Positions 6,001-49,519 of a stretch of DNA of 64,000 bases are shown here, in pieces. How positions within the stretch are numbered: the stretch's first letter is position 1; the number at the start of each line of letters is the position of its first letter. The stretch covers positions 1-64,000 of the forward strand of contig NZ_JAUXOV010000056.1 of assembly GCF_030684215.1 (NCBI RefSeq), in the 5' to 3' direction. The position numbers were made by a program, and so were the translations under genes. The notes below the pieces were generated by a model. It did no database searches and had not been told where the DNA came from. It saw only the letters and a list, made by a program, of their open reading frames with translations. This DNA is from Pseudotabrizicola sp. Lineage in GTDB: Bacteria > Pseudomonadota > Alphaproteobacteria > Rhodobacterales > Rhodobacteraceae.

Positions 6001-6504
6001 ACGCATGTCCGCCATGTGGTAACGGCCAACTGCGGGCCGGCCTCTCAAGCCCTCCACCCAATTGAACAACATAACACCGTAGTTGGTTCCTGTTGCGATC
6101 CCGGTTCCGGGCGTGTTGCCGGGCAGGGATGTCACCTGATTATTGGCCCCGCCCCCAAAAGCGTTCAACCGCCCATAAGCGGGGTTTCCCTCGCCGCCAA
6201 AACCAACGCCAACGCCACCAACTGTCGGCGAGGCAAGACCTGAAAACTGATGATTGAACAGTTCATACGTCGCCGTGATAGGGGGCGCAACACCGGCAAA
6301 GATGTTGTCGTTCGGGTTGTTTGGGTTGTTAACCATGGTAACGGTTTGCGCGTTCAGGCCAACGGCCAAGGCTGCGGTATTCGCGCCAGACACATCCATT
6401 TCAACCGCTGGCAGAACCTGCGCCTGAGCGGCTGCAGTGAAAAACACACCAAAAACAGTGACTACTGAGTAAAACAGAGCCGCGCGCACCGAACAAATAC
6501 ACAT
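1..6504 (-). CDS. Giant secreted DUF11-like repeat protein, partial (C-terminus off the left edge)
   Basis: The frame is open from the ATG at 6504 to the left edge, about 2168 codons, with no stop in the stretches I translated. Residues 1-28 look like a Sec signal peptide: a hydrophobic stretch ending Ala-Gln-Ala before Gln. Residues about 30-410 form a non-repetitive N-terminal region. From about residue 415 onward there are about 15 tandem repeats of about 115 residues. Each carries an ITNTGN-like strand, a Cys pair around an L-A-P-G turn, and a Y-x-V-T-Q-A-D-x-D segment followed by N-T-A. This is the DUF11/DUF7507 repeat style of very long bacterial surface proteins, which suggests a cell-surface stalk or adhesin. 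No clear Shine-Dalgarno precedes the ATG, but an in-frame stop lies a few codons upstream, so the start is well constrained. The sorting or anchoring C-terminus is not visible. Confidence 0.85.
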   Translation of the reverse strand, partial: MCICSVRAALFYSVVTVFGVFFTAAAQAQVLPAVEMDVSGANTAALAVGLNAQTVTMVNNPNNPNDNIFAGVAPPITATYELFNHQFSGLASPTVGGVGVGFGGEGNPAYGRLNAFGGGANNQVTSLPGNTPGTGIATGTNYGVMLFNWVEGLRGRPAVGRYHMADMRITFSTPVSNPVLNLTGLGGSVGSKGFSAAFDLLPGGGATGLSRLSGTASFGVAGNQVNNLTVNPGASCTTLSSGACGSVHVLGNAVTEITLRIYTRSDSTTVWPTTTSGADAYLVGVSAEVSDMQPSFSNLPTTALIPGQTYTGLTLTCTNNGPNTARGAFCEPTVNVGLISNLSCTPAMPGSVSAVSPNNTTVCTYDYQFPLGATENEIILTGQTGAFNDRNGGDDGAAGNNEVTQILPIAQPAFTLTKSSPTASYAASGNTISYQFVITNTGNVAFPAPPTISDPLIQNAGGSISCPSGPIAIGASRTCTASYTVDQSDLDNRQVQNTATAAITLGDREAAATSNQVTVPVALNLALSIDKRLQAGSPSPYSAVGEQLIYEYVLTNSGNITLLDPISVADDKVSVTCPAGNLAPGASITCTSAAYVIAQSDLDDGSVTNIASASTTAAGGGEAVTSPTDTVTVNANQQPAMTMVKTAPPVDPADFAPGLEVVYSYQITNTGNVTITDPITVSDDRINAGTPFACGPVPLAPTAIITCTASYTVTAADVAAGFVSNIASATDGTTTSNTDTETIPQSGSPGLTLSKVADNVTFSALSDTLTYTFTVTNSGETVLVDLTPITISDPKITGISCSQPAVLNPGESFTCTGSYSPISQAEMDAGEVVNTATASVVLPGGTITSPSSSATVPANVTPALSLEKTGPASFNAVGQVLNFDFRVTNTGPQTLSSISVADPMIVAAGGAVSCPAGSVAPGADVTCTASYTVTQADMDSGQITNTATASGSTNLGVTATDTDDAIVLVAAGAQIRALSLNKSSTPTTFTNVNDEITFAFAVENTGTLTLTNIVVTDPIDASYSCTIASLAPGLTDTSCSLTYFITQADIDAGSLTNTAAADDGAGASDTGGTTLSGPIAAPAIEFDKLASVSQYTAAGNTVTFTFSVRNIGNVTLSDVVVTDTFFSPAYTCNVPDLSPGQVNTACQVNYTVTQADVDSGSFQNAASIVVEDPNGTVVTGEDFVVLTGPNEAPAITVTKTEADGTGGFDNLPTSETFTFEVTNSGNVTLVGLQLSDPMIGLSCTLPDLAPGQSTTQCADSSALSGSYTLTQADVDAGSITNTATATGATTRGTAVTATGDLTLTGPERAPSLAIAKATSFVGPYTTVGEVIPYSYTVTNTGNVTLAGPITVDDDRIADVQCAGVPAGGLAPNATLDCSGNYAITQADLDAGSVTNTAFTETVDQGVPVQSLTDDVTVTAAQTAALALDKRRATGAPSSFTAPGVLISYEFVLRNTGNVTLFAPFTVDDALASVDCTTAPASLSPNATTICTASYTTTQADVDAGGVTNTADAAAQDPDGATVTSAQDSVTVPAIRTPALSISKSADAASLDPLNFLVGNTVTYTYVVENTGNVTLTDPVTVSDNLTPVSCPALPVGGLLPAAQITCTASYELTADDLGLGSTTNNALATSGTTVSPSDDVTIPAGAMPALSIEKSIVSGAPFAELNDPIVYNFRVTNSGNAAFIQDVRVFDNVISPIDGDTLCFDSQGGTVNFPPVAADPLAGVVECQATYFVTQADLDRGFVTNEAYAFTTYQNLSPNPIAVQSPTDTETANAGTDPALTLAKTAAPANGAAAGDTITYTLVATNSGNQTLSNVSIADPMLPTLSCDLPAPVTLAPNAALTCTGSYTVTQSDVDAQEINNTAGATAVSPQGADVSATDTAQHVPQAPAAAILIEKLANPAPGANPAYTATGQTLGYRFRVTNTGNITLSDIVVTDSLDPAYSCPVPDLAPGQSNNACIFSLTTTQADIDAGSILNTATVVAVPQNPGAIQIDDSDDLSRNGPARLPELMLFKSALTASFDAPNQILNYAFEVVNSGNVTITTPVTITDDRIGPFVCGNADPGTLAPGASIICEAIDTTIQADVDEGVVVNTASAVGSFDGAPVMSGNVQESINAVQDPSIALVKTADISGLSSPVAVGDVITYGFTVTNTGNVTLTGITLDDPLVTV

Positions 6505-6785
6505 AATTTGACCATTTTTGTTGCAAAATAATTATTAACTAAAAAGCCTTACATTGCAAAGAGAACGGCGGCGGCGCGCTCCCACCCTTACGGTTGGAGT
6601 GGCGTTGTTGCAACATGTGTAACTACCGCCACAGGTGATTCGCGTTGGGCCAAATCGCACGTAAATGATCAAAGAGTGCGAGTTCGACCACCCTTTCAGC
6701 CAGCCAGCCCTTCGAACAAAAACGCCCCTAGGTTGTAAAAGGCTTTACCGCAGCCCTGGATTGGTTCGGGGTCTTGGCATGTTGA
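6505..6785. other. Gene-free region upstream of the giant repeat protein
   Basis: About 280 bases between the start of the repeat protein and the IS remnants. The part nearest the gene is AT-rich on a GC-rich background, as expected of its promoter. TTTGCAA occurs twice within about 45 bases on the minus strand. I see no convincing sigma-70 hexamer pair and no coding sequence. Confidence 0.4.
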
Positions 6786-6828
6786 TTTTCACCCAGAATT
6801 GAGGCGACTTTTTCACCGAGAAGTGAGC
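6786..6828. repeat. Pair of imperfect 19-bp direct repeats, possibly an IS end
   Basis: Two copies of TTTTCACCnAGAAnTGAGn lie at 6786-6804 and 6810-6828, 24 bases apart, differing at about three positions. Closely spaced multiple repeats near a terminus are a habit of IS21-family elements, so this may be the end of a lost element. That identification rests on arrangement only. The repeats abut the IS66 transposase remnant, so the two may be nested debris of different elements. Confidence 0.35.
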
Positions 6829-6833
6829 CGCCG

Positions 6834-7036
6834 CCTTTCCGATCGCCGGAGAAGCGATACCGGTGGGCAGGGGGCGCGGTGCCGCCCCACGGTCGTTCGT
6901 CACGCGCGTAAGTCCAGAACCGGGCTATCTGTGTCTTGCCGGTGCCGGACGCCAGCATGTTGAGCGGCGTATCATCAGCAAAGATCGCATCGGCCGACAG
7001 GACATGGCGGCTGAGCTGCCCCCGGTCGTCCCTCAG
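6834..7036 (-). pseudogene. IS66-family transposase (TnpC) remnant
   Basis: On the minus strand the conceptual protein reads through an ADAIFADDTPLNML segment, then G-T-G-K-T, RFWTYARDERPWGG and a Y-R-F-S-G-D-R-K-G segment. This is the order seen in the catalytic core of IS66 transposases, where the DD of ADDTP is part of the active site. Only about 65 codons are recognisable, against roughly 500 in an intact TnpC. An in-frame stop lies at 7037-7039, and downstream the frame runs into the unrelated repeat pair at 6786-6828. No intact IS66 accessory genes are nearby, so this is an old fragment marking the accessory region. Confidence 0.75.
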
Positions 7037-7039
7037 TCA

Positions 7040-7363
7040 TAACGAGAGTCGTTAACGGGGACATAACGCATGAGTCTGGCGATCGTTCCGACCGGGTTAC
7101 GCCGCCGCCGAAAGCGGCTGACATGGCTTGGTCTCTGGTCTGCGGATCGCCTCAGCCGTTTCGCGTGCATTTAGTGTTGGCAAATGTAGCTGAAAATGGC
7201 TCTGGTATAGCCACAAAAATGGAGCGAATGGCAGCTATCACAAGATGCTGCGAGTGCAATGCTGCAACCTCACAGTCGGCAATCCGCCCCTTGCGAAGTT
7301 GACGGCAGAATCGACGTGCCCGGCCCACAGGGGCCCACGGTCGCTCGGTGGCGAACGGTGGGT
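7040..7363. other. Intergenic stretch, no recognisable gene
   Basis: About 320 bases between the IS66 remnant and the flavin-binding protein gene. Short open frames exist on both strands but none has a family signature or a good ribosome binding site. I see no tRNA, no terminator with a T tract and no clear repeat. It may be mutated IS-derived DNA. Confidence 0.4.
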
Positions 7364-8065
7364 TCAGCGCGAAGCGACGGCAGAAATCACGTCATCCAGA
7401 CGCGCCCCCGCGACATAGCCCTCCAGTCCCGTCATGAGGGGCTGTGCCGGGTTGTTCGGGCAGGGTTGCGCTTTCCCGATCAAGGTTGCGACCGGGATCA
7501 CACCCGCCCAGCTGGGGTTGTCCATATCCTCGGGCTCATCGAGGTTCCCCGCGGCGCGGATCTTGGCCGAGGCTTCCTCGATCTCCATCCCGATGACAGT
7601 CGTGGCCTTGATGTCCTGCGTCGAGAAGGGTCGCAGCCCGGCGTCCCGACCGGGAAAAAAGCGCTCGATCATCGCGTGGAGCGCGGCAACCTTCGCCTCG
7701 CCCTCGATCAGATTGGCTTGGCCGAAGCACATGACCGACCGGTAGTTGGCCGAGTGGTTGAACCCCGTCCGCGCCATCACCAGCCCGTCGAGATGCGCCA
7801 TCGTCAGGCAGACCGGCACGCCGCCTTCCTGCGCACGCAGCATCCGACTGGCGGACGACCCGTGCCAGTAAAGCCGTGTGCCCTCGCGCCAGTAGAGGGT
7901 CGGCGTGCAATAGGGTTGGGCGTCGATGACATAGGACACATGGCACAGCATCCCTGAATCCAGGATGGCATGAACGCTGGCATGGTCGTAGCGGCCCCGG
8001 TCATGACGGCGCTTGAGGCGGTTGCGGGCGGTGAGGGGATAGGTCGGGGTGGCGGCGTCGCTCAT
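7364..8065 (-). CDS. Pyridoxamine 5'-phosphate oxidase family (FMN-binding) protein
   Basis: A 233-residue protein of the split-barrel flavin-binding fold, NimA-like subgroup. The order fits: RRHDRGRYD near residue 20, an H-A-I-L-D-S-G-M-L-C-H-V strand, LYWHGSSASRML for flavin phosphate contacts, and a V-C-L-T-M strand. The start at 8065 is chosen over an in-frame upstream ATG at 8125 because GGAGACCCTTC directly precedes it. It is transcribed divergently from a MocR regulator with only about 40 bases between starts, an arrangement in which MocR proteins often control the neighbour. The substrate cannot be told from sequence. Family members include oxidases and reductases as well as proteins of unknown function. 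Confidence 0.85.
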   Translation of the reverse strand: MSDAATPTYPLTARNRLKRRHDRGRYDHASVHAILDSGMLCHVSYVIDAQPYCTPTLYWREGTRLYWHGSSASRMLRAQEGGVPVCLTMAHLDGLVMARTGFNHSANYRSVMCFGQANLIEGEAKVAALHAMIERFFPGRDAGLRPFSTQDIKATTVIGMEIEEASAKIRAAGNLDEPEDMDNPSWAGVIPVATLIGKAQPCPNNPAQPLMTGLEGYVAGARLDDVISAVASR

Positions 8066-8132
8066 GAAGGGTCTCCTCTTGTTGCCGACGGAGTAGCAGG
8101 CAATATTGGAACCCAAAAGGACCACTCATTTG
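8066..8132. promoter_or_regulatory. Divergent promoter region, possible MocR operator
   Basis: The gap between the flavin-binding protein and the MocR gene is very short. It contains ATTGGAACCCAAAAGGACCA at about 8104-8123, with two GGAmCC-like half-sites separated by an A tract. MocR/PdxR proteins are known to bind short direct or inverted half-sites around promoters of divergent genes. The assignment to this regulator is inferred from position only. Confidence 0.35.
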
Positions 8133-9557
8133 CAGAAACATCGAACCAATTTACCCGACTGGTCCGCGCTGATCCCGGTGCTCCCTGCCGCAGGGCCGCG
8201 CCGCGATGCGCTGCAGGCCGAGTTGCGACGTCTGATCGTGACGCGGGTCCTGCTGCCCGGGCAAAAGCTTCCGCCCAGCCGAGAGCTGGCGCAGCGGCTG
8301 AAACTGGCGCGCGGTGCCGTGGTCGCAGCCTATGAACAGCTGGCCGCCGATGGCTTTGTCGAGGCGCGGCTTGGCGCGGGAACCTTTGTGGCGGCGCAGG
8401 TTCCCGAGCATGCAGCCCACGGCACCGCATTGCAGGCGCCCGTGCCGACCGGCCCCACGCCCCTGGCCCCGGCCCCGGGCAAGCTGGGCGGCGGCACGGT
8501 CGACGACAGGACTCTGCGCGATCTGCGCGGCCTGTTCCGCGAGGCGCTGCTGCGCCCGCCGCCGGAGTTCCTGCACTACGGCGATCCCTTCGGTGACCTG
8601 TCCTTGCGCCGGGAAATCGTGGATTACCTGCGGGTCACGCGCGGCATCCGGGCCGGGATCGATCAGGTGATGATCACATCGGGCACGCAATCAGCCCTGT
8701 CGCTGATTGCCCGGGCGTTTCTGCCGTCTGACAGCCGGATCTGGGTCGAGGACCCTTGCTATCCGCAGGCGCTGAACCTGTTTCGAAGCCTTGGGCTGAC
8801 AATCATCCCGGTGCCGGTGGACGGGGATGGCCTTGACCCCGCCGCAGGTATGCTCGCCGCGCCCGAGGCCGAGGCGGTCTATCTGACACCGTCCCACCAG
8901 TTCCCGCTTGGCGCGACGCTCTCCATGCCGCGCCGTCTGGCGCTGCTGGACTGGGCACAGGGGGCTGGCGCGTGGATCATCGAGGATGATTACGACAGCG
9001 AATTCCGCTTCACCGGTCCGCCTCTGGCCGCACTTCACGGTATCGACCGGGCCGGGCGCGTGATCTATCTCGGCACCTTCTCCAAGGCGCTGGCACCCGG
9101 CTTGCGGCTCGGCTATGCGGTGCTGCCGGCCGAGGTTGTCGAAACGGTCCGCAGACTGCGCGACCTGACCGACCGCTATCCCAACCCTCTGATCGAGACG
9201 GTGCTGGCCCGATTCATGGCCGATGGGCATTACGCCGCGCACCTGCGCCGCGCCCGCAAGCGCTGCCGGATGGCGCGGGACGCGCTGGTCGAGGGGCTGT
9301 CTGCGGCACCGCTGGATGTGATGAACCCCGATCAGGGGTTGCATCTGATTGCCTTTGCCCGCGGCGACGAAGCGGATGCCGAACTGCAGCGCCTGGCGGA
9401 GGCGGGCGGTCTTTGCAGCCGCCGCCTATCGCAGATGTTCCTCAAGGCCCCAGCACGACAGGGGCTTGTGATCGGCTACTCTGGCTTCGAGACCGCCGAA
9501 ATCCGGGCTGCCGCTCATGGAGCGACACGGGCCATCACTTCGGGAAGAAGAGGATAA
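8106..9557 (+). CDS. MocR/PdxR-type transcriptional regulator (GntR HTH fused to class I aminotransferase domain)
   Basis: About 483 residues. An N-terminal winged helix (residues about 35-100, with LPPSRELAQRLKLARG and a wing at DGFVEARLGAGTFV) is joined by a Pro-rich linker to a fold-type I PLP domain. The PLP domain shows a TSGTQSALSL segment, the E-D-D-Y-D-S-E-F motif, and the lysine in GTFSKALAPGLRLGY that would form the Schiff base. MocR proteins sense PLP or related ligands and control divergent genes. The neighbour here belongs to the pyridoxamine-phosphate-oxidase superfamily. The first possible start is TTG at 8106, with a second TTG at 8133. No ATG lies close upstream, so the exact start is uncertain. 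Confidence 0.88.
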   Translation: MEPKRTTHLQKHRTNLPDWSALIPVLPAAGPRRDALQAELRRLIVTRVLLPGQKLPPSRELAQRLKLARGAVVAAYEQLAADGFVEARLGAGTFVAAQVPEHAAHGTALQAPVPTGPTPLAPAPGKLGGGTVDDRTLRDLRGLFREALLRPPPEFLHYGDPFGDLSLRREIVDYLRVTRGIRAGIDQVMITSGTQSALSLIARAFLPSDSRIWVEDPCYPQALNLFRSLGLTIIPVPVDGDGLDPAAGMLAAPEAEAVYLTPSHQFPLGATLSMPRRLALLDWAQGAGAWIIEDDYDSEFRFTGPPLAALHGIDRAGRVIYLGTFSKALAPGLRLGYAVLPAEVVETVRRLRDLTDRYPNPLIETVLARFMADGHYAAHLRRARKRCRMARDALVEGLSAAPLDVMNPDQGLHLIAFARGDEADAELQRLAEAGGLCSRRLSQMFLKAPARQGLVIGYSGFETAEIRAAAHGATRAITSGRRG

Positions 9558-9659
9558 TTCGCGCAGGCTTCTGCATGCATCAGGTCACGCGTTCACGATA
9601 CGGTCAAGCGCTGGAACCCTGAACGACCGCTTCCCGCCCATACTGCCTCACAGTCGCCC

Positions 9660-10091
9660 TCACCTTCGCTGCTTCGTGATCAGATTCATTGCAAACCTCA
9701 GCGCCGCTCTGTGTTCCTGAGTCAATCCTTCGGTCAATCGATCTTCCACTGCCGTCATGGCTTTCCTGGCGGGCAGCAACCGGTCTAGGCCATCTGGGCA
9801 GAGTGAAATCAGAATACTGCGTGCGTCCGTGGGGTCCGGCACACGAGAAACAAGGCCATCGCGTTCTGCCCGTTTCAGGCTCAGCGTAATTGTCGACGTC
9901 TCGACGTCCAGTGCCCGAGCTATAACCGCCGGACGAAGATCACCTGTTCGGTCCAGAAGGTCGATGATCGCAAACTGGGCAGGTGCGAGGCTAAAGGGTG
10001 CCAAGGCTTCTGCGAACTCGCGCTCCACAATGCGTGCCGCCAGGATCAGAAGGCTGATGAGAGGCGCTTGAACCTCTTCTTGTTCCTGCAT
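9660..10091 (-). CDS. MarR-family transcriptional regulator
   Basis: A 143-residue winged-helix protein. An N-terminal dimerisation helix is followed by LAPAQFAIIDLLDRTGDLRP, a recognition helix around RALDVETSTITLSLKRAERDG, and the wing D-P-T-D-A-R-S, which is the classic MarR DxRxx wing. C-terminal helices follow. The start at 10091 is preferred over ATG 10112 because GAGGTAGCGGC precedes it. It is divergent from the nuclease/AAA+ operon. Two palindromes in the shared intergenic region flank the forward promoter, which suggests that it represses that operon and possibly itself. The ligand is unknown. Confidence 0.88.
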   Translation of the reverse strand: MQEQEEVQAPLISLLILAARIVEREFAEALAPFSLAPAQFAIIDLLDRTGDLRPAVIARALDVETSTITLSLKRAERDGLVSRVPDPTDARSILISLCPDGLDRLLPARKAMTAVEDRLTEGLTQEHRAALRFAMNLITKQRR

Positions 10092-10156
10092 GCCGCTACC
10101 TCTGCCCCCCATGATTCCACGTAGTTCCCTCCTTATGCACTAATGCGCACAAAATC

Positions 10157-10211
10157 GCTAGCATGCTATTGACAAGACGGCATCTTGCATCCATATTGCT
10201 AGCATACTAGC
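10157..10211 (+). promoter_or_regulatory. Sigma-70-type promoter flanked by two MarR-like palindromes
   Basis: TTGACA at 10169-10174 and CATATT at 10192-10197 are separated by exactly 17 bases and point at the downstream operon. The palindrome GCTAG-N4-CTAGC at 10198-10211 covers the expected transcription start. A related copy, GCTAG-N4-CTATT at 10157-10170, overlaps the upstream edge of the -35 box. Copies are 41 bases apart, close to four helical turns. This is a textbook repressor arrangement, and the adjacent MarR gene is the obvious candidate. Binding is inferred. Confidence 0.7.
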
Positions 10212-10279
10212 GTTTCTTTTGGAGCATCCTGGATGGACCCCTGCAAACTATCGACCCAGACAAGCGAGGATCAGGCATC

Positions 10280-11551
10280 ATGTTGAGACACCCTTGCGAA
10301 ATGTCACGATCCATTACTCTGGTACGGGCGATGGTGAATGGCGACACCGCACCGAAATCCGTTGCTGGCATCCTGAACAGCGCTTCTGCCGAGGCCCTCG
10401 CCCTGATGCGTTTTTTGCCTCATTCTTGCGGCCATTGCGGCGGGCGGGTGAACCTCCGCGTCCAATCTGTCGGAACTTCCGGCACGACCGGCGGTCTACG
10501 TGCATACTTCGCACATGCCGTGGATGAAGGTGTCGGGTGCCCCGCAGTCACACAGGATGCCTGTCGGGCCGACGAGATCGGCGCGACCATGTTTGGTGGA
10601 AAACAGGAAGGCCCGCGCCATCGGCAAATGAAAGATATGATGTTGGCGGCAGCTGCGGCTGATGCGGCCGTGACCTTCGCACAAGCTGAGGTGTATCTGA
10701 CATACGGCAATGCTGGCCGACGTCCCGACGTCGTCGTCGGGATCAACGATCAGCTTGTATGCTGTGACATTCAACTTGCGCCGCCGCCTCGCATCACGAT
10801 CAGCGGGAGGACAGCCTTCTATGAACCGGCATGCTTTAGGCATGCCTGGGTTCTTGACGGAGCTGCCTTGGATCGCGTCAATCTACAGCCGTTCCAGGAT
10901 CTGCTCTGGCGGCAAGGCGGTCGCACCTTAGCATTTGACGAGGAATGCTTGGAGAAATCCGTGTCTTCCAAAGCGCTCACGTTCAAGCTTGTCACCATCA
11001 CGGATGAAGGGAACCTGATCACGACGGCATGGCATTGGGTCCAGGGGGACGACCTCCTGGCGTGCCTTGGCATGTCGCCCACCGACACAGGCACAGCCAA
11101 GGACTTTCTCTCACAGGCGTTTCTTGCTGCCCTCGCATCGACCGATCGTGCTGACCTGCAACGCTGGTACGAAGCAGTGGGGCCGGACCTCGGACTCTCC
11201 GACTGGAATGCGTTCAGGGTAGATGGCCTGCGCCCGCTGCTCGGCGCTCTTGCATCGGTCCTGGCAAGCGAAGTGCGGGATGGCTCTGCGCGCCGCCCGT
11301 CTGAAGTCACCGCCGTAGTTCACAATGCTCTGACGACAGGCCTGTCCGACGGCCGACATCTGTGGGCGCCTATTATCACCATGGCCATGAAGCGGCGGGC
11401 CGAGCTGCCCAACGCAGTGGGATTCGGCCTCAAGACCGCGGCCATGATCGACCGCGCCAGCCGATGCCATGATCCCGCAGAGTTCAACCGCAGGATCGAC
11501 GTGTGGCGTCCCTTGCTGTTGCGCCTCGTCCCGGCGCTTGCGTTGCCGTAA
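10280..11551 (+). CDS. CoiA-like protein: zinc finger plus PD-(D/E)XK-type nuclease fold
   Basis: A 423-residue protein. Residues about 49-95 give a Cys/His finger: C-G-H-C, then AYFAHAVDEGVGCP, matching the CxxC...HFxH...C pattern at the start of CoiA/DUF6035-like proteins. Next come EGPRHRQMKDMML and GRRPDVVVGINDQLVCCDIQ, laid out like the H-x-x-x-K, D and (D/E)-x-Q elements of that nuclease-like superfamily. The second acidic position is Asp here. The C-terminal 200 residues are unfamiliar. CoiA proper acts in competence; distant relatives are scattered in mobile regions with unknown roles. It is the first gene after the MarR-flanked promoter, with a leader of about 75 bases. Confidence 0.7.
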   Translation: MLRHPCEMSRSITLVRAMVNGDTAPKSVAGILNSASAEALALMRFLPHSCGHCGGRVNLRVQSVGTSGTTGGLRAYFAHAVDEGVGCPAVTQDACRADEIGATMFGGKQEGPRHRQMKDMMLAAAAADAAVTFAQAEVYLTYGNAGRRPDVVVGINDQLVCCDIQLAPPPRITISGRTAFYEPACFRHAWVLDGAALDRVNLQPFQDLLWRQGGRTLAFDEECLEKSVSSKALTFKLVTITDEGNLITTAWHWVQGDDLLACLGMSPTDTGTAKDFLSQAFLAALASTDRADLQRWYEAVGPDLGLSDWNAFRVDGLRPLLGALASVLASEVRDGSARRPSEVTAVVHNALTTGLSDGRHLWAPIITMAMKRRAELPNAVGFGLKTAAMIDRASRCHDPAEFNRRIDVWRPLLLRLVPALALP

Positions 11552-11636
11552 CACCAAGCCACTCCCAAACAAACACGTCAACCTCAACCCGGTCTCACGG
11601 GCCGAACTCTCACACCTAAAATTCAAGGAAAACATC

Positions 11637-11798
11637 ATGTTTCAAGCTGATCCTCACCCCCGCCTGACGCCCCAAAATGACCGTCGCGATGCTGCCCGCG
11701 CGGATGCACAGTTCTCGTTTAATGTGGACGCGATGCTTTCACGCCGCCCACGCCGCCCGATTTCTCTGCCCCGCCCGCCCGCAACCCGCGGCCGCTGA
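11637..11798 (+). CDS. Small basic Pro/Arg-rich protein of unknown function (53 aa)
   Basis: It starts at ATG 11637 after AAGGAAAACATC, which is a usable Shine-Dalgarno. It sits 85 bases after the CoiA-like gene and 12 bases before the AAA+ gene, on the same strand. The first half contains D-R-R-D-A-A-R-A-D-A-Q-F. The second half is dominated by Arg and Pro, as in SRRPRRPISLPRPPATRGR. No family is recognised. Its basic tail could bind nucleic acid or present a degron to the protease encoded next, but that is speculation. It could also be non-coding leader sequence. Confidence 0.45.
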   Translation: MFQADPHPRLTPQNDRRDAARADAQFSFNVDAMLSRRPRRPISLPRPPATRGR

Positions 11799-11810
11799 AC
11801 AGGATCCCAA

Positions 11811-12794
11811 ATGAAGGATATCAAGATGAGACCATACAATACCTCCAAGATCCCGGCGTGGCACGGCTTCGCAAATTCGATGCTGGAGGCCATTTCAGAC
11901 GGCAGAAAGCCTCCGCTGGATCCAGAGACAGAAGCCCAGATCGCGGCTGAAGTTGCTGGCTTGTGGGCGATGACCCCGGCTGAGGCGTCTGTATCGCCAG
12001 AGGAAGCCGAGGCCATGGCTGCCGCCAATGAAGACCTGTTGGCCGCGGACTCCAATGGCAACACCTTGCCTGATTTGCCGGTCGATATTCCACTGACGCT
12101 GATGTGCGCACGGGTTGCGCAAGCCATTGGCAGTTCGCGCTCCGTGAGCGATCTGACCCGCCCCGGGGCGGTGACCGTGTTACAGATTGCTGACAGCGCT
12201 GATCTACCCATGTTGAGCGATGTGGTGCGAAACGGCATGATTTCGAAACGTATTCGTGTGTCGCAAACCCTGCAGCGGGCCCTTCGAGAGAAGGCCGTGC
12301 ATTGCATTTCGCTGTTCCGGGGCGAGAGTGTTGATACTTCGCCAAAGGCGGCCATTGCGCGGATCGAAGACGCCTTGGCGCTGCGCCCTGCCCTCATCGT
12401 GCTGTTGTCAGATCCGATGCTGTTGCCCAAACACTTGCGCGAGGTTCTCCCCGAACCGATCCGCCTGCCCTCCTTGACCCAGGAAGCGGTACTTTTTGCG
12501 CTGTCGAAAAGCCACTCCCGGACCGGTCGCGTCGATCGCAAAAAGATTCTGGCGCTGCTGCCCGAGGGTCAGATCCTTGCACAGCTGTCGAAGGTGCAGC
12601 TGTTCCGTGCGTTTCGCGAGCCTACGACCCTTCGGGTGGCTCAGGACCTGTCGAAGGGTACGGTTATCACCGCGACGGATCGACTTTTGGAACTTGAGGG
12701 TTCTGGAGCCCTCTACACGGTCGCCCGGCAAATCGTTGCGGATATGACGGCCTTTAAAAATGGCACGCTTCCCTGGTCCGAGGTGCCACATTGA
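11811..12794 (+). CDS. N-terminal half of an FtsH-like AAA+/M41 protein, ended by an in-frame TGA
   Basis: It starts at ATG 11811 after AGGATCCCAA. The 327-residue product has no signal peptide or membrane segment. It has an acidic Ala/Glu-rich segment (residues about 40-85) and a mixed N-domain. It ends in an LEGSG...TVARQIVADM...LPWSEVPH segment, which in related AAA+ proteases leads straight into the Walker A strand. The stop TGA (12792-12794) is in the same frame as the following coding region. Removing that one codon would give an uninterrupted 717-codon protein in which a Gly codon is expected at this site. On its own this half has no catalytic motif. Confidence 0.75.
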   Translation: MKDIKMRPYNTSKIPAWHGFANSMLEAISDGRKPPLDPETEAQIAAEVAGLWAMTPAEASVSPEEAEAMAAANEDLLAADSNGNTLPDLPVDIPLTLMCARVAQAIGSSRSVSDLTRPGAVTVLQIADSADLPMLSDVVRNGMISKRIRVSQTLQRALREKAVHCISLFRGESVDTSPKAAIARIEDALALRPALIVLLSDPMLLPKHLREVLPEPIRLPSLTQEAVLFALSKSHSRTGRVDRKKILALLPEGQILAQLSKVQLFRAFREPTTLRVAQDLSKGTVITATDRLLELEGSGALYTVARQIVADMTAFKNGTLPWSEVPH

Positions 12795-13964
12795 TTGCTG
12801 CTGAACGGCGCACCAGGAACGGGAAAAACCTATGCGGCTCAGTGCATCGCCGCTGCAACCGGATTGCCCTTTGTCGCGGCGACAGTCGGGGAATGGCAAA
12901 GCAAAGGACATTTGGGAGATATGTTGAGGGCCATGACCGCAACATTCGATGAAGCACGCCTCAAGGCTCCGTGCATCTTGTTTATCGACGAACTGGATGG
13001 CATCGGGGACCGGAAGGATACCGATAACCACGCCCGATCTTACCGCCGCCAGGTGGTCAACGAACTGCTGGCACAGATCGATGGGGTTGTCGGGTGCGAA
13101 GGGATCATGCTGGTGGGCGCAACAAACCACGCGGAAGACATCGACGCCGCTGTCTTGCGCGCAGGTCGGCTGGACATGCATGTGACCGTGCCGCTGCCCG
13201 ACGCCAAAGGCATCGAGCGCATTTTCCGTCACCATCTCGGCTCCGACACCTTTGTGGACCTTTCGCCGGTCGTGACGGCGGCACGCGGGAAAACTCCGTC
13301 TGACATCGCAGGATCCATTCGCATCGCCCGCGCCACGGCACGGGCAAGCGGCGTCCCTCTGACCCTTGGCCACATCACCGCAGCCCTGCCGCACCGTGCG
13401 GTGACCGATTCACCACTGGCACGGCGGATCGCTGTCCACGAAGCGGGACACGCACTGATCGCGCACATCCTGAAGATCGGCGACATCCACGAGCTTTCGC
13501 TCAAGGGCAATGGCGGCGAAATCCTGATCTACCGCGCGGCCTGGGAGGGCACGATCAAGACTTTCGACGACCAGATCGCATACTGCTTGGCGGGACGTGC
13601 AGCGGAAATCATCATGCTGGGGGATGCATCCGGCGGAGCTGGCGGCAGCGAAAACTCCGACCTCGCATTGGCAACCTCCTTCGCATTGCAAATGGAACGG
13701 ACGATGGGCCTCGGCCTGAACGGCCTGCTCTGGGAACCCATCGGCGCTGCTGGCCGACCGATGACCGAGGGCGAGCGGTGGAACGTGGGCCAACGACTGG
13801 AATTGCAATCAAAGCGTGCAGTTGCGCTTCTTTCCCCCCATCTTCCGATCCTGGCAGAAATCGCGAAGCGGCTCGCTGTGTCAGGTTATCTGACCGCCAA
13901 TGATATCTCTGCTTTGCTGCCAGAAATTGAGCAAACCCTCAAAGATGCGTCGGTGGATGGGTAG
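12795..13964 (+). CDS. C-terminal half of an FtsH-like AAA+/M41 protein: ATPase and zinc protease domains
   Basis: In frame with the preceding gene and directly after its TGA. A TTG follows the stop, with GAGG 11 bases ahead, so reinitiation is possible. The product has Walker A GAPGTGKT, Walker B I-L-F-I-D-E-L-D, an RAGRLD second region of homology with an arginine finger, then the M41 zinc motif H-E-A-G-H and a downstream G-G-S-E-N-S-D-L segment supplying a probable third ligand. The family unfolds and degrades proteins using ATP and zinc. The transmembrane helices of true FtsH are absent, so a soluble enzyme is expected. Started at TTG, the protein would begin only six residues before Walker A, with the preceding part of the fold supplied by the upstream half. 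Confidence 0.8.
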   Translation: MLLNGAPGTGKTYAAQCIAAATGLPFVAATVGEWQSKGHLGDMLRAMTATFDEARLKAPCILFIDELDGIGDRKDTDNHARSYRRQVVNELLAQIDGVVGCEGIMLVGATNHAEDIDAAVLRAGRLDMHVTVPLPDAKGIERIFRHHLGSDTFVDLSPVVTAARGKTPSDIAGSIRIARATARASGVPLTLGHITAALPHRAVTDSPLARRIAVHEAGHALIAHILKIGDIHELSLKGNGGEILIYRAAWEGTIKTFDDQIAYCLAGRAAEIIMLGDASGGAGGSENSDLALATSFALQMERTMGLGLNGLLWEPIGAAGRPMTEGERWNVGQRLELQSKRAVALLSPHLPILAEIAKRLAVSGYLTANDISALLPEIEQTLKDASVDG

Positions 13965-14418
13965 AAATTCTAGTTGATGGGCCGATCCGGCCGATGTACC
14001 AACTGTGGCATCAGAGTGTGGCATCACAGACTGGACCTGCGGAATTTCTTGCTTTGAAATCAAACCATTTGAAGATGGCTCCGTTCACTACCGCCGGAGC
14101 CAAAAATCTCAAGAAAAGCAGAATGTTGCAAGCAATCCCTTAGGGGTGGCACTTGGGGCTTTTGGGGTTTTCTTGCTGGCTGCCTTGGTTTTCCATACCC
14201 GGGCAGAAAATGTGGGCTGCCTCGTTCAGCACAATGCGCATGGATTGGCCTGACAAACCTGCCAGAGATATCCTTGACGCCGCCGCTGTCTTACGATCCT
14301 TTTGCGCTTGGCGGGAGGCGCGGGATCAGCCGCTATCATTTGCGCTTCATGGGCCAGTTGTTTGAACATCCGCATACAGACCCGCGGGTTGTCTGTCCGA
14401 CCAGACTAAAGGGATCCC
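13965..14418. other. Intergenic region after the AAA+/M41 operon
   Basis: About 450 bases. A GTG-started frame at 14005-14253 would encode 82 residues with one hydrophobic segment near its middle, but it has no good ribosome binding site and no family resemblance, so I do not call it. No tRNA, inverted repeat or T-tract terminator is evident. This is a plausible right boundary of the accessory region, since the next gene resembles core metabolism. Confidence 0.35.
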
Positions 14419-15948
14419 ATGAAAACGATCACGGCAGATATTGCGATCATCGGATCGGGTGTGGGCGGCAGCTCGGTTGCGCATCAGCTGGCGGGCAGTG
14501 GCGCAAAAATCCTGATTTTGGAGCGTGGCGATTTTCTGCCCAACGAGCCGCAAAACAGCGATGCCGAGGCGGTTTTTGTTCAGTCCCGCTACAAGACCCG
14601 CGAAGAATGGCAAGATGCCAAGGGCGCGCTTTATCGGCCGGGGCAGTATTATTATGTTGGCGGGCACACTAAATTCTACGGCACGGCAATGTTCCGCTTT
14701 CGCCCGCGTGATTTTGTCTCAACGATGATTGATGGCGCAGCCTCGCCGTCCTGGCCGATCAGCTACGATGACCTTGCGCCACATTATGCAAAGGCCGAGC
14801 GGCTTTACGGGGTGCGCGGGCACTCCGGGCTGGATCCGACCGAGCCGCCGCGTGCCGGTTTCCCACACGCCGCCATTCCGCACGAGCCGGTGATTGCCGC
14901 CCTTGCCGACCGGCTGCGCGGTCTGGGCCTGCATCCGTTTCCGATGCCATCTGCGGTGGATTACGGGCCGGGCGGGGCCTGCCAGCGTTGCGGCACCTGC
15001 GACGCGTTTGCCTGCCGCTATGATGCCAAGGGCGACGCAGATACCCGCGTTCTGCGCCCTTTGCTTACGCATCCCGATGTGCGGCTGGAGCGCAACGCCG
15101 AAGTAACCCGGCTGATTGTCGATGACCGGGGCCAGCGCATCATTGCGGCTGAGGTGCAGCGCGGGGGCGCAATGTTCCGCGTTGAGGCACCATTGTTTGT
15201 GCTGAGCGCGGGGGCGATCAATTCGGCCCTGATCCTGCTGCGCTCGGCCTGTGAGGCGGCTCCTGAGGGGCTGGCGAACCGGTCAGGCGTTGTCGGGCGG
15301 TATCTGATGAACCACCATCTGACCGGGATGATGGGTATCAGTCCGTTTGCGACCAATGACACGAAGTTTCCCAAAACACTGTCCGTGAACGATTTTTACC
15401 ACGGGCTGCCGGGGGATGCTGACGCGCGCGGCAATGTGCAGATGCTGGGCAATATTCAGGGCCCCATGATCCGGTCAACCTATCCGGCGATGCCACGGGC
15501 TTTGGCGAACTGGCTGGGGCGGCATTCTGTGGATGTGCTGGCGATGTCAGAAGACCTGCCAAATCCCGACAGCCGCGTGCGCCTGACCAGTGGCGGGCAG
15601 GTGGTGGTTGACTACCGCCCCGGCGGCACTGCGGCGCATGACCGCTTTGTGCGCCATGTCAGAGGCATTTTGCGCCGGGCGGGGTTTGCCGCCGTACTGC
15701 GCCATAGCTTTGGCATTCAGGCCCCATCGCACCAATGCGGCACAGTTCGAATGGGCAATGATCCGGCGTCTTCGGCGCTGGACGGGATGTGCCGCGCCCA
15801 TGATCACCCCAATCTTTATGTGGTGGATGCCGGGTTCTTCCCATCCTCTGCAGCACTGAACCCTGCGTTGACCATCGCGGCCCAAGCGCTTCGGGTCGGG
15901 GCGCATTTGCACAACACGCGCGGGCAGGATGCCGGGGCTGCGGTCTGA
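14419..15948 (+). CDS. GMC-family FAD-dependent oxidoreductase
   Basis: A 509-residue protein. The N-terminal dinucleotide-binding motif is I-I-G-S-G-V-G-G-S with a following L-E-R-G. A GGHTKFYGTAMFRFRPRDF segment is the GMC signature region. A Cys-rich C-x-x-C-G-T-C-D-A-F-A-C cluster lies near residue 195. The C-terminal S-H-Q-C-G-T-x-R-M and NLYVVDAGFFPSSAALNP segments complete the FAD site. Members oxidise alcohols or sugars. The substrate is not evident, but a sugar or polyol is likely given the neighbouring polysaccharide genes. AAAGGGATCCC precedes the ATG. It has no signal peptide, so it is cytoplasmic. Confidence 0.88.
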   Translation: MKTITADIAIIGSGVGGSSVAHQLAGSGAKILILERGDFLPNEPQNSDAEAVFVQSRYKTREEWQDAKGALYRPGQYYYVGGHTKFYGTAMFRFRPRDFVSTMIDGAASPSWPISYDDLAPHYAKAERLYGVRGHSGLDPTEPPRAGFPHAAIPHEPVIAALADRLRGLGLHPFPMPSAVDYGPGGACQRCGTCDAFACRYDAKGDADTRVLRPLLTHPDVRLERNAEVTRLIVDDRGQRIIAAEVQRGGAMFRVEAPLFVLSAGAINSALILLRSACEAAPEGLANRSGVVGRYLMNHHLTGMMGISPFATNDTKFPKTLSVNDFYHGLPGDADARGNVQMLGNIQGPMIRSTYPAMPRALANWLGRHSVDVLAMSEDLPNPDSRVRLTSGGQVVVDYRPGGTAAHDRFVRHVRGILRRAGFAAVLRHSFGIQAPSHQCGTVRMGNDPASSALDGMCRAHDHPNLYVVDAGFFPSSAALNPALTIAAQALRVGAHLHNTRGQDAGAAV

Positions 15949-16204
15949 CCATGCTGAAAAGCCCGGAAAGGCAGCCCGGTCTCTGTCAGCGGTGAAGCGG
16001 CGTAGCTTCCACAAGGCGCACGGCCGATTGTCAGTGGCGCATTCACATTGCGCCAGACCTCACAAATCGGCGTTGTGCCGGCGTGTCACTGTACAAGAGC
16101 CAGACCGATAGAGCTGGCCGCAACAAAACCACTGCACCGCGTTGGCAAGGCGACTCCCAAGCCTTACCGTGCGGATGCAGGGCCAAAAGCGCCGGGGGAG
16201 GCAG

Positions 16205-16903
16205 ATGCAGGGAAGCGAGTCGTTTGACGAGTTTGTGCTTTTCGGAAGCCGGGGGCACAGTCAGATGTTTGTCATCGTGTTGGAAGGGGTCTGGCAAGGT
16301 CGGGTCCGCCTGCGTGCCGTGGTCGATGATCTGAACAACGGATATCTGCATCCATCGCTTGGTGTTAAGGTGATTTCCGGGGCAGAGCGGGCCGCGCACC
16401 ACGCTAATCTGCCGGTCCTGCTGACGATCGGCAATGGTGAAACACGCGCCAAAATCGCCGCACGACTGGCAGAGGAAGGCGCGGTTCTGGCCACCTTCAT
16501 CAACCGGGTGCCGGAAAGGGTCGCGGCAGATGCAAAAATCGGGGCGGGCACGATTGTGGATCCGTTAACCCGGATCAGCCCCAATGTGGTGATTGGCGCC
16601 GGGGCGCAGATTTTGGCCTTGGCCATCGGGCATGACGTGACCATCGGCGATTTCGCCACTTTGGCGGCTGGCTGCATCATCAACGGCAATGTCCAGATCG
16701 GAGCCGGGGTCAACATCGGCTCTGGCGCGGTGATCTGCAACGGAACGCCCGGCAACCCGCTGCGCATCGGTGACGGCGCAACAATCGCAATGGGGGCTGT
16801 CATCATGCGCGATGTGCCGCCGGGGGCGCGGATGATGGGCAATCCGGCCATGACGGTGCGCGAATGGATGCGCTTGCAGGCTCTGGTCAGGCGACCGGGC
16901 TAA
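16205..16903 (+). CDS. NeuD/PglD-type sugar O-acyltransferase (left-handed beta-helix)
   Basis: A 232-residue protein. The N-terminal part has a P-loop-like VLFGSRGHSQMF, typical of the small nucleotide-sugar binding domain of NeuD/PglD proteins. From residue about 100 there are hexapeptide repeats (for example IGAGTIVDP, IGDFATLAAGC, IGAGVNIGSG) ending in the V-P-P-G-A-R-M-M-G-N-P-A signature. Such enzymes acetylate sugars of surface glycans. The start at 16205 is chosen because GGGGGAGGCAG lies immediately upstream; upstream ATGs lack this. The 3' end overlaps the end of the convergent glycosyltransferase by 17 bases. Confidence 0.85.
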   Translation: MQGSESFDEFVLFGSRGHSQMFVIVLEGVWQGRVRLRAVVDDLNNGYLHPSLGVKVISGAERAAHHANLPVLLTIGNGETRAKIAARLAEEGAVLATFINRVPERVAADAKIGAGTIVDPLTRISPNVVIGAGAQILALAIGHDVTIGDFATLAAGCIINGNVQIGAGVNIGSGAVICNGTPGNPLRIGDGATIAMGAVIMRDVPPGARMMGNPAMTVREWMRLQALVRRPG

Positions 16904-18467
16904 GCAACCCGTCGCAATATGCGCCAAAACCCAGATGGGGGCGCAGCGTTGCGCGCCGTTGGTGCCGATCCGCCGCAGTTTGGGTCCGGGTAAACGCAAG
17001 GGCTGCGGCCACAAAACCGGCCCTGTCGCCCGCATCGACAAACTGCCCCAGCGGATCGGCAATGCCCCACAGGCCGATATCGGCGGCGTAGCCCACAAAG
17101 GGTGTTCCGGTTGCCGCCGCGTGGATCACCGTCGTCGGGCCGGGATCTTCGCGTGAGGTCAGAAGATAGACCGACGATGCCGCGTACCAAGGCAGTGAAC
17201 CGGCGACAAATCCGGGTAGTACCAAGGGCAGACCATGCGCCCGTGCGGTGTCAGCCAAGCCTTGCGCCCACGGGTCAAGCCCGCCCAGCCAGACAAACCC
17301 CGCATTCGGCAAAGCCGCGTGCAGATCCTGTGCCGCATCCAGAAACAGATCAAAACCCTTGCGCCTGTCCGCATAGCCCGCCCCGATGAATAGCGTTTTG
17401 CCTTTGCTCGCACGGCGGCAGGCCCTGAAATCAGCGAGTGGCGCGGGCGGCAGCCCCACGCCGGGCCGCAGCACCTGCAAAGAGCCCAGATCCGGCATCA
17501 GGGCCGCCGCCATCCGGGGAAAAGACGCGACCACCCGAGCGCCAGCCGCTTGGGCGGCGATCAGATCGGGCAACAGGTCCCGCGCCGCAAGATAGCCACG
17601 CAATTCATGGATCAGCAGGGTTGTCGCCAGCCCGGCCTGTGCTGCGGCAGTGGCGATGCGGGCCATCTCTGCGCTGTGCAGGATGGCCGGAACATCCTGC
17701 CCGAACCCGGCAAAAATCCCCGGAGCGTCCCAGCCTTCGGACAGCACAAAAACCGGACCAAGGCGCTGAAAGTCAGCAACAAGCGGGCCACCCTCGCGCA
17801 GGACAAAGGCAACGGAATGGCCGCGCGCCACACAGTGACGGGCGATATCCAGCGTCAGAATCGGAGTGCCGGCTTGTTGCGCATCATGAACGCCCAACAG
17901 GACCGGGCGGCGCAAAGTGGCCCGCGCCTGACCAGAGGCCGCCGCTGATTGTGCGGCACTGCGCGGCTGCGGCTTGGGCATATGGCCCGCCTTTTGCCCG
18001 ACATTCCGGTAATGCGCAAAGGCAAGGGTCTGTGCCAACCGCAAATACCGGCGCTGGTAAAAGCCTGCATCAAACGCATCCGACGGGCTACGCCCTTCAA
18101 GATCGCCGTGCCGGGCAAAATGCCCCGCAGCAGACATCCCCGACTCCGCCACATCTGGGTGGCGCCGCACATAGGCCACAGGGTCAATCAGCGGATGCGG
18201 AGAGCGCCGCGCCCCCAGTGCCTCTTGCGCAAGAAAATCATCCAGCGCAGTCGGCTTCCCACCGTCTGCCCAGTCGGGATACAGGCGCTTGTAATGCAGG
18301 GTTGAGAAGTAGGGCGATGGATCAAGGCCCAGCTGATCCCCCTGCCCGCGAAAATGGGTCAGCGGATCGGTGACATCTGTGGGAATCTGACGCCTGTAAA
18401 AGTCTGCGTCGAAAAACCCTTCGCAAGGCAGGTCTGTGGCCGGGGTCAGGGTCAGCGTCGTCGTCAT
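16887..18467 (-). CDS. Glycosyltransferase, GT4-like (GT-B fold)
   Basis: A 526-residue protein. Residues about 15-170 hold repeated short motifs of the F-D-A-x-F-Y-x-x-x-Y type (FFDADFYRRQ, FDAGFYQRRY), seen at the N-termini of multi-domain polysaccharide glycosyltransferases. The C-terminal part is a GT-B donor domain: G-K-T-L-F-I-G-A-G-Y-A-D-R-R-K-G, then LPGFVAGSLPWYAASSVYLL and S-R-E-D-P-G-P-T-T-V-I-H-A with the E-D-P-G-P motif that contacts the nucleotide. It is last in a three-gene minus-strand group and overlaps the upstream gene by 4 bases, indicating translational coupling. Donor and acceptor are unknown. Confidence 0.82.
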   Translation of the reverse strand: MTTTLTLTPATDLPCEGFFDADFYRRQIPTDVTDPLTHFRGQGDQLGLDPSPYFSTLHYKRLYPDWADGGKPTALDDFLAQEALGARRSPHPLIDPVAYVRRHPDVAESGMSAAGHFARHGDLEGRSPSDAFDAGFYQRRYLRLAQTLAFAHYRNVGQKAGHMPKPQPRSAAQSAAASGQARATLRRPVLLGVHDAQQAGTPILTLDIARHCVARGHSVAFVLREGGPLVADFQRLGPVFVLSEGWDAPGIFAGFGQDVPAILHSAEMARIATAAAQAGLATTLLIHELRGYLAARDLLPDLIAAQAAGARVVASFPRMAAALMPDLGSLQVLRPGVGLPPAPLADFRACRRASKGKTLFIGAGYADRRKGFDLFLDAAQDLHAALPNAGFVWLGGLDPWAQGLADTARAHGLPLVLPGFVAGSLPWYAASSVYLLTSREDPGPTTVIHAAATGTPFVGYAADIGLWGIADPLGQFVDAGDRAGFVAAALAFTRTQTAADRHQRRATLRPHLGFGAYCDGLLSPVA

Positions 18468-20773: not shown

Positions 20774-20782
20774 CACCATGCC

Positions 20783-49474: not shown

Positions 49475-49497
49475 CTCTCGCTCCGTTGACAGGTTTC

Positions 49498-49519
49498 GCA
49501 TACTAGCATATTAGTTTGC
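49498..49519. promoter_or_regulatory. Palindromic operator between the GntR regulator and uxaC
   Basis: GCA-N-ACTA-N6-TAGT-N-TGC is a nearly perfect palindrome of 22 bp. It lies about 25 bases ahead of the GntR start and 55 bases ahead of uxaC, so it can control both directions. FadR-type GntR proteins bind palindromes with an A/T-rich core. Binding is inferred from position. Confidence 0.6.

What the first reader, a model, noticed from the sequence alone, without database searches (positions are those of the whole stretch)
10280..13964. Candidate undescribed operon: CoiA-like nuclease, small basic protein and FtsH-like AAA+/M41 protein under MarR-type control
Seen: four collinear coding regions follow one promoter flanked by two palindromes, with a divergent MarR gene. 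Known: the CoiA-like Zn-finger/PD-(D/E)XK-type fold and the AAA+/M41 fold are each established, but I know of no described pair. The block sits between IS remnants and core genes. Inferred: a self-regulated nuclease-protease module, possibly anti-phage or linked to DNA uptake.
Basis: partly seen in the sequence, partly recalled or inferred. Interest (0 to 1): 0.75.

Follow-up and report, generated by a model that had tools for sequence, protein, structure and literature searches.

The report
Damaged copy of a nuclease-protease module
The window holds a damaged copy of a mobile bacterial gene module that pairs a DNA-cutting enzyme with an ATP-driven protease; in relatives the protease stays while the DNA-cutting enzyme is swapped for unrelated ones, a pattern seen in systems that fight phages or other invading DNA, though its job is untested.

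Summary
The pairing is real and is one case of a wider pattern. The "four coding regions" are at most three: ORFs 11811-12794 and 12795-13964 are one FtsH-like AAA+/M41 gene cut by a single in-frame TGA just before Walker A. The 53-aa ORF has no relative among the loci held. The CoiA-like gene is open, with a PD...DxQ site; a low-confidence model matches mostly PD-(D/E)XK nucleases.

In the window's family, 25 of 29 readable M41 loci have a nuclease-type gene directly upstream: GIY-YIG-like 19, PD-(D/E)XK "QxK" type 4, CoiA-like 2; 0 of 24 ordinary FtsH loci do. Three of three held-out congeneric loci agree, one with a related MarR and similar operator boxes but a different nuclease. Outside that family the rule mostly fails.

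Serine recombinases, plasmids and some CBASS/TIR neighbours suggest a mobile conflict module; function is inferred, not shown. The literal CoiA-M41 pair was seen at only two loci, DNA uptake is unsupported, and the window copy is probably inactive. My paper searches found no description of the module.

The parts
9660..10112 (-). MarR-family regulator gene, divergent
   Evidence: Pfam MarR_2 E 2.5e-11, MarR E 6e-11; related MarR genes beside M41 modules in L166, L124 and L046
10157..10168 (.). operator-like box 1, GCTAGCATGCTA
   Evidence: exact match; one of two exact copies in the genome; similar boxes in the L166 gap. Binding untested
10169..10197 (+). promoter-like site TTGACA-17-CATATT
   Evidence: consensus match only; number found is within chance
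10198..10209 (.). operator-like box 2, GCTAGCATACTA
10280..11551 (+). CoiA-like nuclease gene, 423 aa, open
   Evidence: Pfam CoiA_nuc over residues 110-201; invariant C50, C53, H79, C87, E110, H114, P149, D150, Q165 and D/E at 163 in 12 of 12 homologues
10607..10855 (+). PD-(D/E)XK-type core (residues 110-192) of the CoiA-like protein
   Evidence: model residues 77-186 (= 106-215 of the protein) matched by mostly PD-(D/E)XK folds
11637..11798 (+). 53-aa basic ORF, doubtful gene
   Evidence: AAGGA upstream, no family, no relative in loci held
11811..13964 (+). FtsH-like AAA+/M41 gene, interrupted; likelier start 11826 (my reading)
12792..12794 (+). in-frame TGA that interrupts the AAA+/M41 gene before Walker A
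12795..13196 (+). AAA+ ATPase domain with Walker A GAPGTGKT and FIDE
   Evidence: Pfam AAA E 2.9e-30; motifs
13422..13712 (+). M41 peptidase domain with HEAGH and SDLA
   Evidence: Pfam Peptidase_M41 E 6.8e-8; motifs

Best explanation
The block is a decayed copy of a mobile two-enzyme module: a soluble-looking AAA+/M41 metalloprotease preceded by an exchangeable nuclease, here behind a MarR-type regulator. Shown by sequence: the gene order, the exchange of nuclease types in one slot, frequent serine recombinases and RHH genes beside it in relatives, patchy occurrence, and the stop codon in the window's protease gene. Inferred: it acts in conflict with phages, plasmids or other mobile DNA. The AAA+/M41 protein responds to the invader, unfolds or cleaves the nuclease or an inhibitor of it, and so licenses the nuclease to cut DNA; different nucleases serve as interchangeable effectors. 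MarR keeps expression low through the two boxes around the promoter. In the window the TGA ends the protease before its ATPase core, so this copy is probably not working as a pair although the nuclease gene is open. My estimates: module and nuclease exchange 0.9; conflict or defence role 0.5; protease acting on or for the nuclease 0.45; window copy inactive 0.85.
For: 25 of 29 readable family loci (of 31 fetched; 2 run off contigs) have a nuclease-type gene directly upstream of M41: 19 GIY-YIG-like, 4 QxK, 2 CoiA-like; 0 of 24 ordinary FtsH loci (4 kb each) hit the same profiles. Three of three held-out congeneric loci fit. NCBI names the slot gene GIY-YIG nuclease in L151 and group I intron-associated PD-(D/E)XK endonuclease in L155. 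18 of 24 GIY-YIG-like places lie beside M41, 4 do not, 2 are partial. Serine recombinase profile hit in 11 of 31 and RHH in 18 of 31 fetched family stretches. Patchy: 4 of 16 congeners, 24 of 295 family genomes at E 1.9e-47 or better. Plasmid copies: 40 of 72,556 records. Neighbours include CBASS, TIR, SAVED with nucleotidyltransferase. MarR and boxes. Protease-activated nucleases are known in other immune systems (PMC12799240; abstract, outline and term hits seen).
Against: No assay. The profiles were built partly from the loci counted: 11 of 19 GIY-YIG-like, 4 of 4 QxK and 2 of 2 CoiA-like genes. Four readable family loci lack any of the three (L046, L047, L113, L139). Outside the family only 1 of 12 class-scan loci fits (L124, itself in the QxK profile) and only 4 of 13 plasmid loci viewed. 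GIY-YIG assignment is weak by Pfam (MUG113 in 3 of 11, best E 0.0017). Many neighbours are not defence genes, and no module protein has a PADLOC match beyond generic AAA models. The window itself lacks a detected serine recombinase, RHH and c3 gene within 4001-20000.
Confidence: 0.5

Rival explanations
1. A housekeeping module of a serine-recombinase mobile element: nuclease and AAA+ protease help excision, transfer or maintenance of the element, not defence.
For: Serine recombinase profile hit in 11 of 31 family stretches, and in held-out L164 and L165; c3 and RHH genes travel with the module (17 and 18 of 31); a relaxase gene beside L048 and annotated beside L155.
Against: 20 of 31 stretches, and the window, show no such recombinase; recombinase-free loci keep the nuclease-M41 pair; unrelated nucleases in one slot fit effectors better than a fixed recombination partner.
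Confidence: 0.2
2. The protease restrains rather than licenses the nuclease: M41 degrades a toxic nuclease in uninfected cells, as an antitoxin would, and invaders that block it free the nuclease.
For: Same gene pairing; AAA+ proteases commonly control unstable partners (general knowledge).
Against: In three loci with a broken protease and a readable upstream gene (window, L032, L117) the nuclease frame is open, which should be harmful if the protease were the only restraint; transcriptional repression could hide this.
Confidence: 0.17
3. The window's module still works: the stop is a sequencing error, is read through, or the second half is made from the TTG right after the TGA.
For: Both halves keep their motifs; TTG follows the stop directly; third codon positions vary most between the C half and L033; the assembly is a draft.
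Against: Reinitiation would split the N region from the ATPase, whereas 17 of 17 aligned relatives are unsplit there; no ribosome-binding site was noted before the TTG; other M41 copies are broken too, L050 also by one TGA.
Confidence: 0.1
4. A DNA-uptake (competence) operon, as the name CoiA suggests.
For: Pfam CoiA_nuc match; CoiA of pneumococcus is implicated in DNA uptake and recombination (PMC1189080, passages seen).
Against: Only the nuclease domain is shared; the same slot holds GIY-YIG-like and QxK nucleases in relatives; P0001 matches 0 of 20 relatives, 12 of them congeners.
Confidence: 0.03

Closest known systems
Nuclease-protease pairs of Hachiman, AVAST and canu (PMC12799240; abstract, outline and term hits seen)
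   Same: A nuclease gene, typically upstream, paired with a protease and shared among systems; proposed licensing of the nuclease by the protease is borrowed from it.
   Different: There the nuclease is a metallo-beta-lactamase fold and the protease trypsin-like or caspase; here nucleases are CoiA-like, QxK or GIY-YIG-like and the protease is AAA+/M41. CoiA, FtsH, M41, AAA and GIY-YIG are not found in that paper's text.
FtsH (TIGR01241)
   Same: AAA+ followed by M41 with Walker, FIDE and HEAGH motifs.
   Different: Scores 120-188 bits in seven unbroken relatives and 142.7 in the window's C half against a cut-off of 600; different N-terminal region without a Pfam family; sits beside nucleases.
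CoiA (PF06054) and DUF6035 proteins
   Same: Nuclease-like domain above Pfam's cut-off with PD...(D/E)xQ.
   Different: Paired with M41 at two loci only; other CoiA-like relatives have other neighbours.
IetAS anti-phage system
   Same: IetA models are the best PADLOC matches of the AAA domain.
   Different: Match confined to the AAA part; here protease and ATPase are one chain and the partner is a nuclease. That IetS is a serine protease is recalled.
Other defence proteins with the same nuclease types (PMC9519451, PMC13190303; passages seen)
   Same: [quoted passage not shown] coli defence hits; SNIPE is a membrane GIY-YIG nuclease that acts on phage DNA.
   Different: No M41 protease is mentioned in the passages seen.

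Membership tests
FtsH (TIGR01241 equivalog) | Whole-protein score of at least 600 bits | tested here: not met
   120.3-188.1 bits in 7 of 7 unbroken relatives scanned; 142.7 for the window's C half alone
FtsH (TIGR01241 equivalog) | AAA+ then M41 with Walker motifs and HEXXH | tested here: met
FtsH (TIGR01241 equivalog) | N-terminal membrane anchor | tested here: inconclusive
   Best 19-residue Kyte-Doolittle mean in the first 200 residues is 0.89-1.61 in 17 relatives and 1.48 in the window N half; up to 1.81 anywhere; no dedicated predictor run
CoiA (PF06054) | CoiA_nuc domain above the gathering score | tested here: met
   23.2 bits against 20.3
CoiA (PF06054) | PD...(D/E)xQ active site | tested here: met
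   P149, D150, D163, Q165; D or E at 163 in 12 of 12; site type from PMC1189080
CoiA (PF06054) | Role in DNA uptake | not testable with these tools
   needs a transformation assay
Nuclease-protease pairs of PMC12799240 | MBL-fold nuclease with trypsin-like or caspase protease | tested here: not met
   Pfam gives CoiA_nuc, AAA and M41
Nuclease-protease pairs of PMC12799240 | Nuclease is a proenzyme activated by its protease | not testable with these tools
   needs biochemistry
IetAS | IetA model match over the protein | tested here: not met
   NCBIfam IteA 89.2 bits against a cut-off of 510, AAA part only; PADLOC 90.4 bits, AAA part only
IetAS | Adjacent serine protease gene | tested here: not met
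   No peptidase S8 match in the 11 window proteins given to Pfam (7, 5 less none shared; stretch 4001-20779)
MarR regulators | MarR winged-helix domain | tested here: met
   PF12802 44.0 bits against 27, PF01047 42.5 against 24.6
MarR regulators | Binds operators at its own locus | not testable with these tools
   candidate boxes only

The most novel reading that the evidence does not exclude
A new class of bacterial conflict module in which a soluble AAA+ metalloprotease is the constant core and licenses any of several unrelated nucleases plugged into the gene slot before it, spread by serine recombinases and plasmids and controlled by swappable RHH or MarR repressors.
Probability: 0.35. Interest if true: 0.82.

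Novelty: new variant of a known kind. Interest (0 to 1): 0.6.

Why it matters
If true, it extends protease-activated nucleases in immunity to ATP-driven FtsH-type proteases and shows a plug-in design in which the protease is kept and the nuclease exchanged. It gives ready test material: open modules with different nucleases, three of them in the window's own genus beside its own second copy.

Tried and rejected
Competence operon: not the leading idea, because the slot also holds GIY-YIG-like and QxK nucleases.

53-aa ORF as a module member: no family and no relative in loci held.

Literal CoiA-M41 co-occurrence: 7 of 295 family genomes have a CoiA-like gene, 2 beside M41; 5 of 385 class genomes have one, and the 4 outside the window's genome show no M41 in the stretches read. 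The window and L037 rows were in that profile.

Phage origin: at E up to 1e-20 P0003 matches 13 of 50,697 phage records; the 10 shown are 28.8-29.5% identical. P0001 and A6 found no relative in viral contigs.

DNA-level relatives on plasmids: no match.

PDB sequence searches: A3 and A4 gave nothing I could use.

Empty site: the downstream GMC gene has matches in only 3 of 16 genus genomes at E 1e-100, 45-47% identical apart from itself, so the site could not be compared.

IS66 interruption of M41 in L122: IS66 is there, but no M41 remnant was found.

EAD11 match of one c3 protein: E 0.0055, below cut-off, not used.
Full report
What is there. On the + strand the window carries a CoiA-like gene (10280-11551), a 53-aa ORF (11637-11798) and two ORFs (11811-12794, 12795-13964), with a divergent MarR gene (9660-10112). 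The last two ORFs share one frame, parted only by a TGA at 12792-12794. In an alignment with 17 relatives the first ends and the second begins with exactly one column between them, right before Walker A; 17 of 17 relatives have a residue there. A family profile spans 11811-13946 with one TGA inside. So this is one FtsH-like AAA+/M41 gene with a premature stop. After the stop, Walker A, FIDE, HEAGH and SDLA are kept. The likelier start is 11826, which has AAGGA upstream (my reading).

The protease family. It is not FtsH proper: 120-188 bits in 7 of 7 unbroken relatives, and 142.7 for the window's C half, against a cut-off of 600. The N-terminal region has no Pfam family, and no clear membrane anchor was seen with a simple hydrophobicity scan. 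In 295 family genomes, 30 places in 24 genomes match the C half at E 1.9e-47 or better; the next are about 1e-38 and have FtsH-like lengths (at most 6 candidates per genome were scored, so counts are lower bounds). I fetched all 30 neighbourhoods and one weaker place (G262), 31 in all with the window. In the genus 4 of 16 genomes have a member. In the class sample 12 of 385 genomes have a match above 340 bits, the next at 285 or less (2 candidates per genome scored).

The slot before the protease. Of the 31 loci, 19 have a zinc-ribbon protein with a GIY-YIG-like C-terminus directly upstream (one only as a fragment at a contig end, L051), 4 a ~200-aa PD-(D/E)XK protein with QxK, and 2 a CoiA-like protein (window, L037). 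Four have none of these (L046, L047, L113, L139) and two run off the contig (L050, L136): 25 of 29 readable. The same profiles hit 0 of 24 ordinary FtsH loci of 4 kb each. Of the counted genes, 11 of 19 GIY-YIG-like, 4 of 4 QxK and 2 of 2 CoiA-like were rows of the profiles; 8 GIY-YIG-like were not. Held-out test: the three other congeneric M41 loci all fit. L164 and L165 have c3, GIY-YIG-like, M41 and a serine recombinase in that order (L164 with RHH); L166 has MarR, QxK nuclease and M41. NCBI annotation names the slot gene 'GIY-YIG nuclease family protein' in Paracoccus alcaliphilus and 'group I intron-associated PD-(D/E)XK endonuclease' in Sulfitobacter faviae. In reverse, of 24 GIY-YIG-like places 18 lie beside M41, 4 do not (L121, L122, L123, L137) and 2 are partial.

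Limits of the pattern. Of 13 plasmid M41 loci viewed, 4 have one of the three nuclease types upstream (L052, L057, L151, L155; L057 was a profile row). Several Hyphomicrobiales ones have a metallophosphoesterase beside or near the protease. Of 12 M41 loci outside the family from the class scan, 1 fits (L124, itself a profile row). The slot is a feature of the window's family and a few others, not of all relatives.

Regulation. Two boxes GCTAGCATRCTA bracket a TTGACA-17-CATATT site and are the only exact copies in the genome. In congeneric L166 the divergent MarR is 51% identical over 117 aa. Its 371-bp gap holds five matches with at most two mismatches, reached by 0 of 2000 dinucleotide shuffles; its one match with at most one mismatch is reached by 11 of 2000. 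L046 and L124 also have MarR genes but no similar boxes. RHH is found in 18 of the 31 stretches.

Mechanism. By analogy with protease-activated nucleases of Hachiman, AVAST and canu (PMC12799240; abstract, outline, term hits) I think the AAA+/M41 protein most likely licenses the nuclease on invasion. Open nuclease frames beside broken proteases fit an activator better than a sole restraint. This is inference. The window copy is probably inactive.

What is known. Searches (FtsH or FtsH-like, M41, CoiA, GIY-YIG, metallophosphoesterase, anti-phage or defence terms; DUF6035; IetAS) listed no paper whose title or abstract start describes this module; some searches listed only the best 15 of 136, 11 of 12 and 12 of 13. 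I saw passages of four papers. bioRxiv and most subscription papers are outside the library.

Verdict. Observation partly confirmed, interpretation partly supported. The general module is interesting and, in these searches, undescribed; the window's copy is a damaged member with the rarer CoiA-like nuclease. On rechecking I lowered the overall confidence slightly (0.5), because the family-wide count leans on profiles built partly from the same loci.

Noticed in passing
L045 (G000:C77), 98-7211: The window's own genome has a second, unbroken M41 module with the GIY-YIG-like nuclease, c3, RHH and a serine recombinase.
   Followed up: yes
L050 51-2342; L032 3156-5245; L117 7191-9475: M41 copies in three other genomes are also broken, L050 by one in-frame TGA, the others by split frames.
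   Followed up: partly
L154 637-3809: Just upstream of the M41 gene of Rhizobium leguminosarum lie genes annotated serine protease and metallohydrolase (Lactamase_B by Pfam), which recall the published nuclease-protease pairs.
   Followed up: no
L053 5045-9922; L054 6293-8976; L055 6074-9294; L154 5299-8120: In Hyphomicrobiales plasmids a metallophosphoesterase gene lies beside or near the M41 gene instead of the three nucleases.
   Followed up: partly
L108 3545-7957; L109 1422-5858: CoiA-like genes in two genomes of other families share neighbours of about 252 and 335-341 aa; one neighbour of L108 weakly matches a CARF model and another is Schlafen AlbA_2.
   Followed up: no
L129-L135: A separate group of M41-like proteins of about 900 aa in other families has none of the three nucleases upstream; two of their matches were reported with an in-frame TAG.
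   Followed up: no
L121 3825-6047, L122, L123, L137: The GIY-YIG-like gene also occurs without M41; in L122 an IS66 transposase follows.
   Followed up: partly
window 49496-49513: Two overlapping two-mismatch copies of the MarR box on opposite strands, possibly chance.
   Followed up: no
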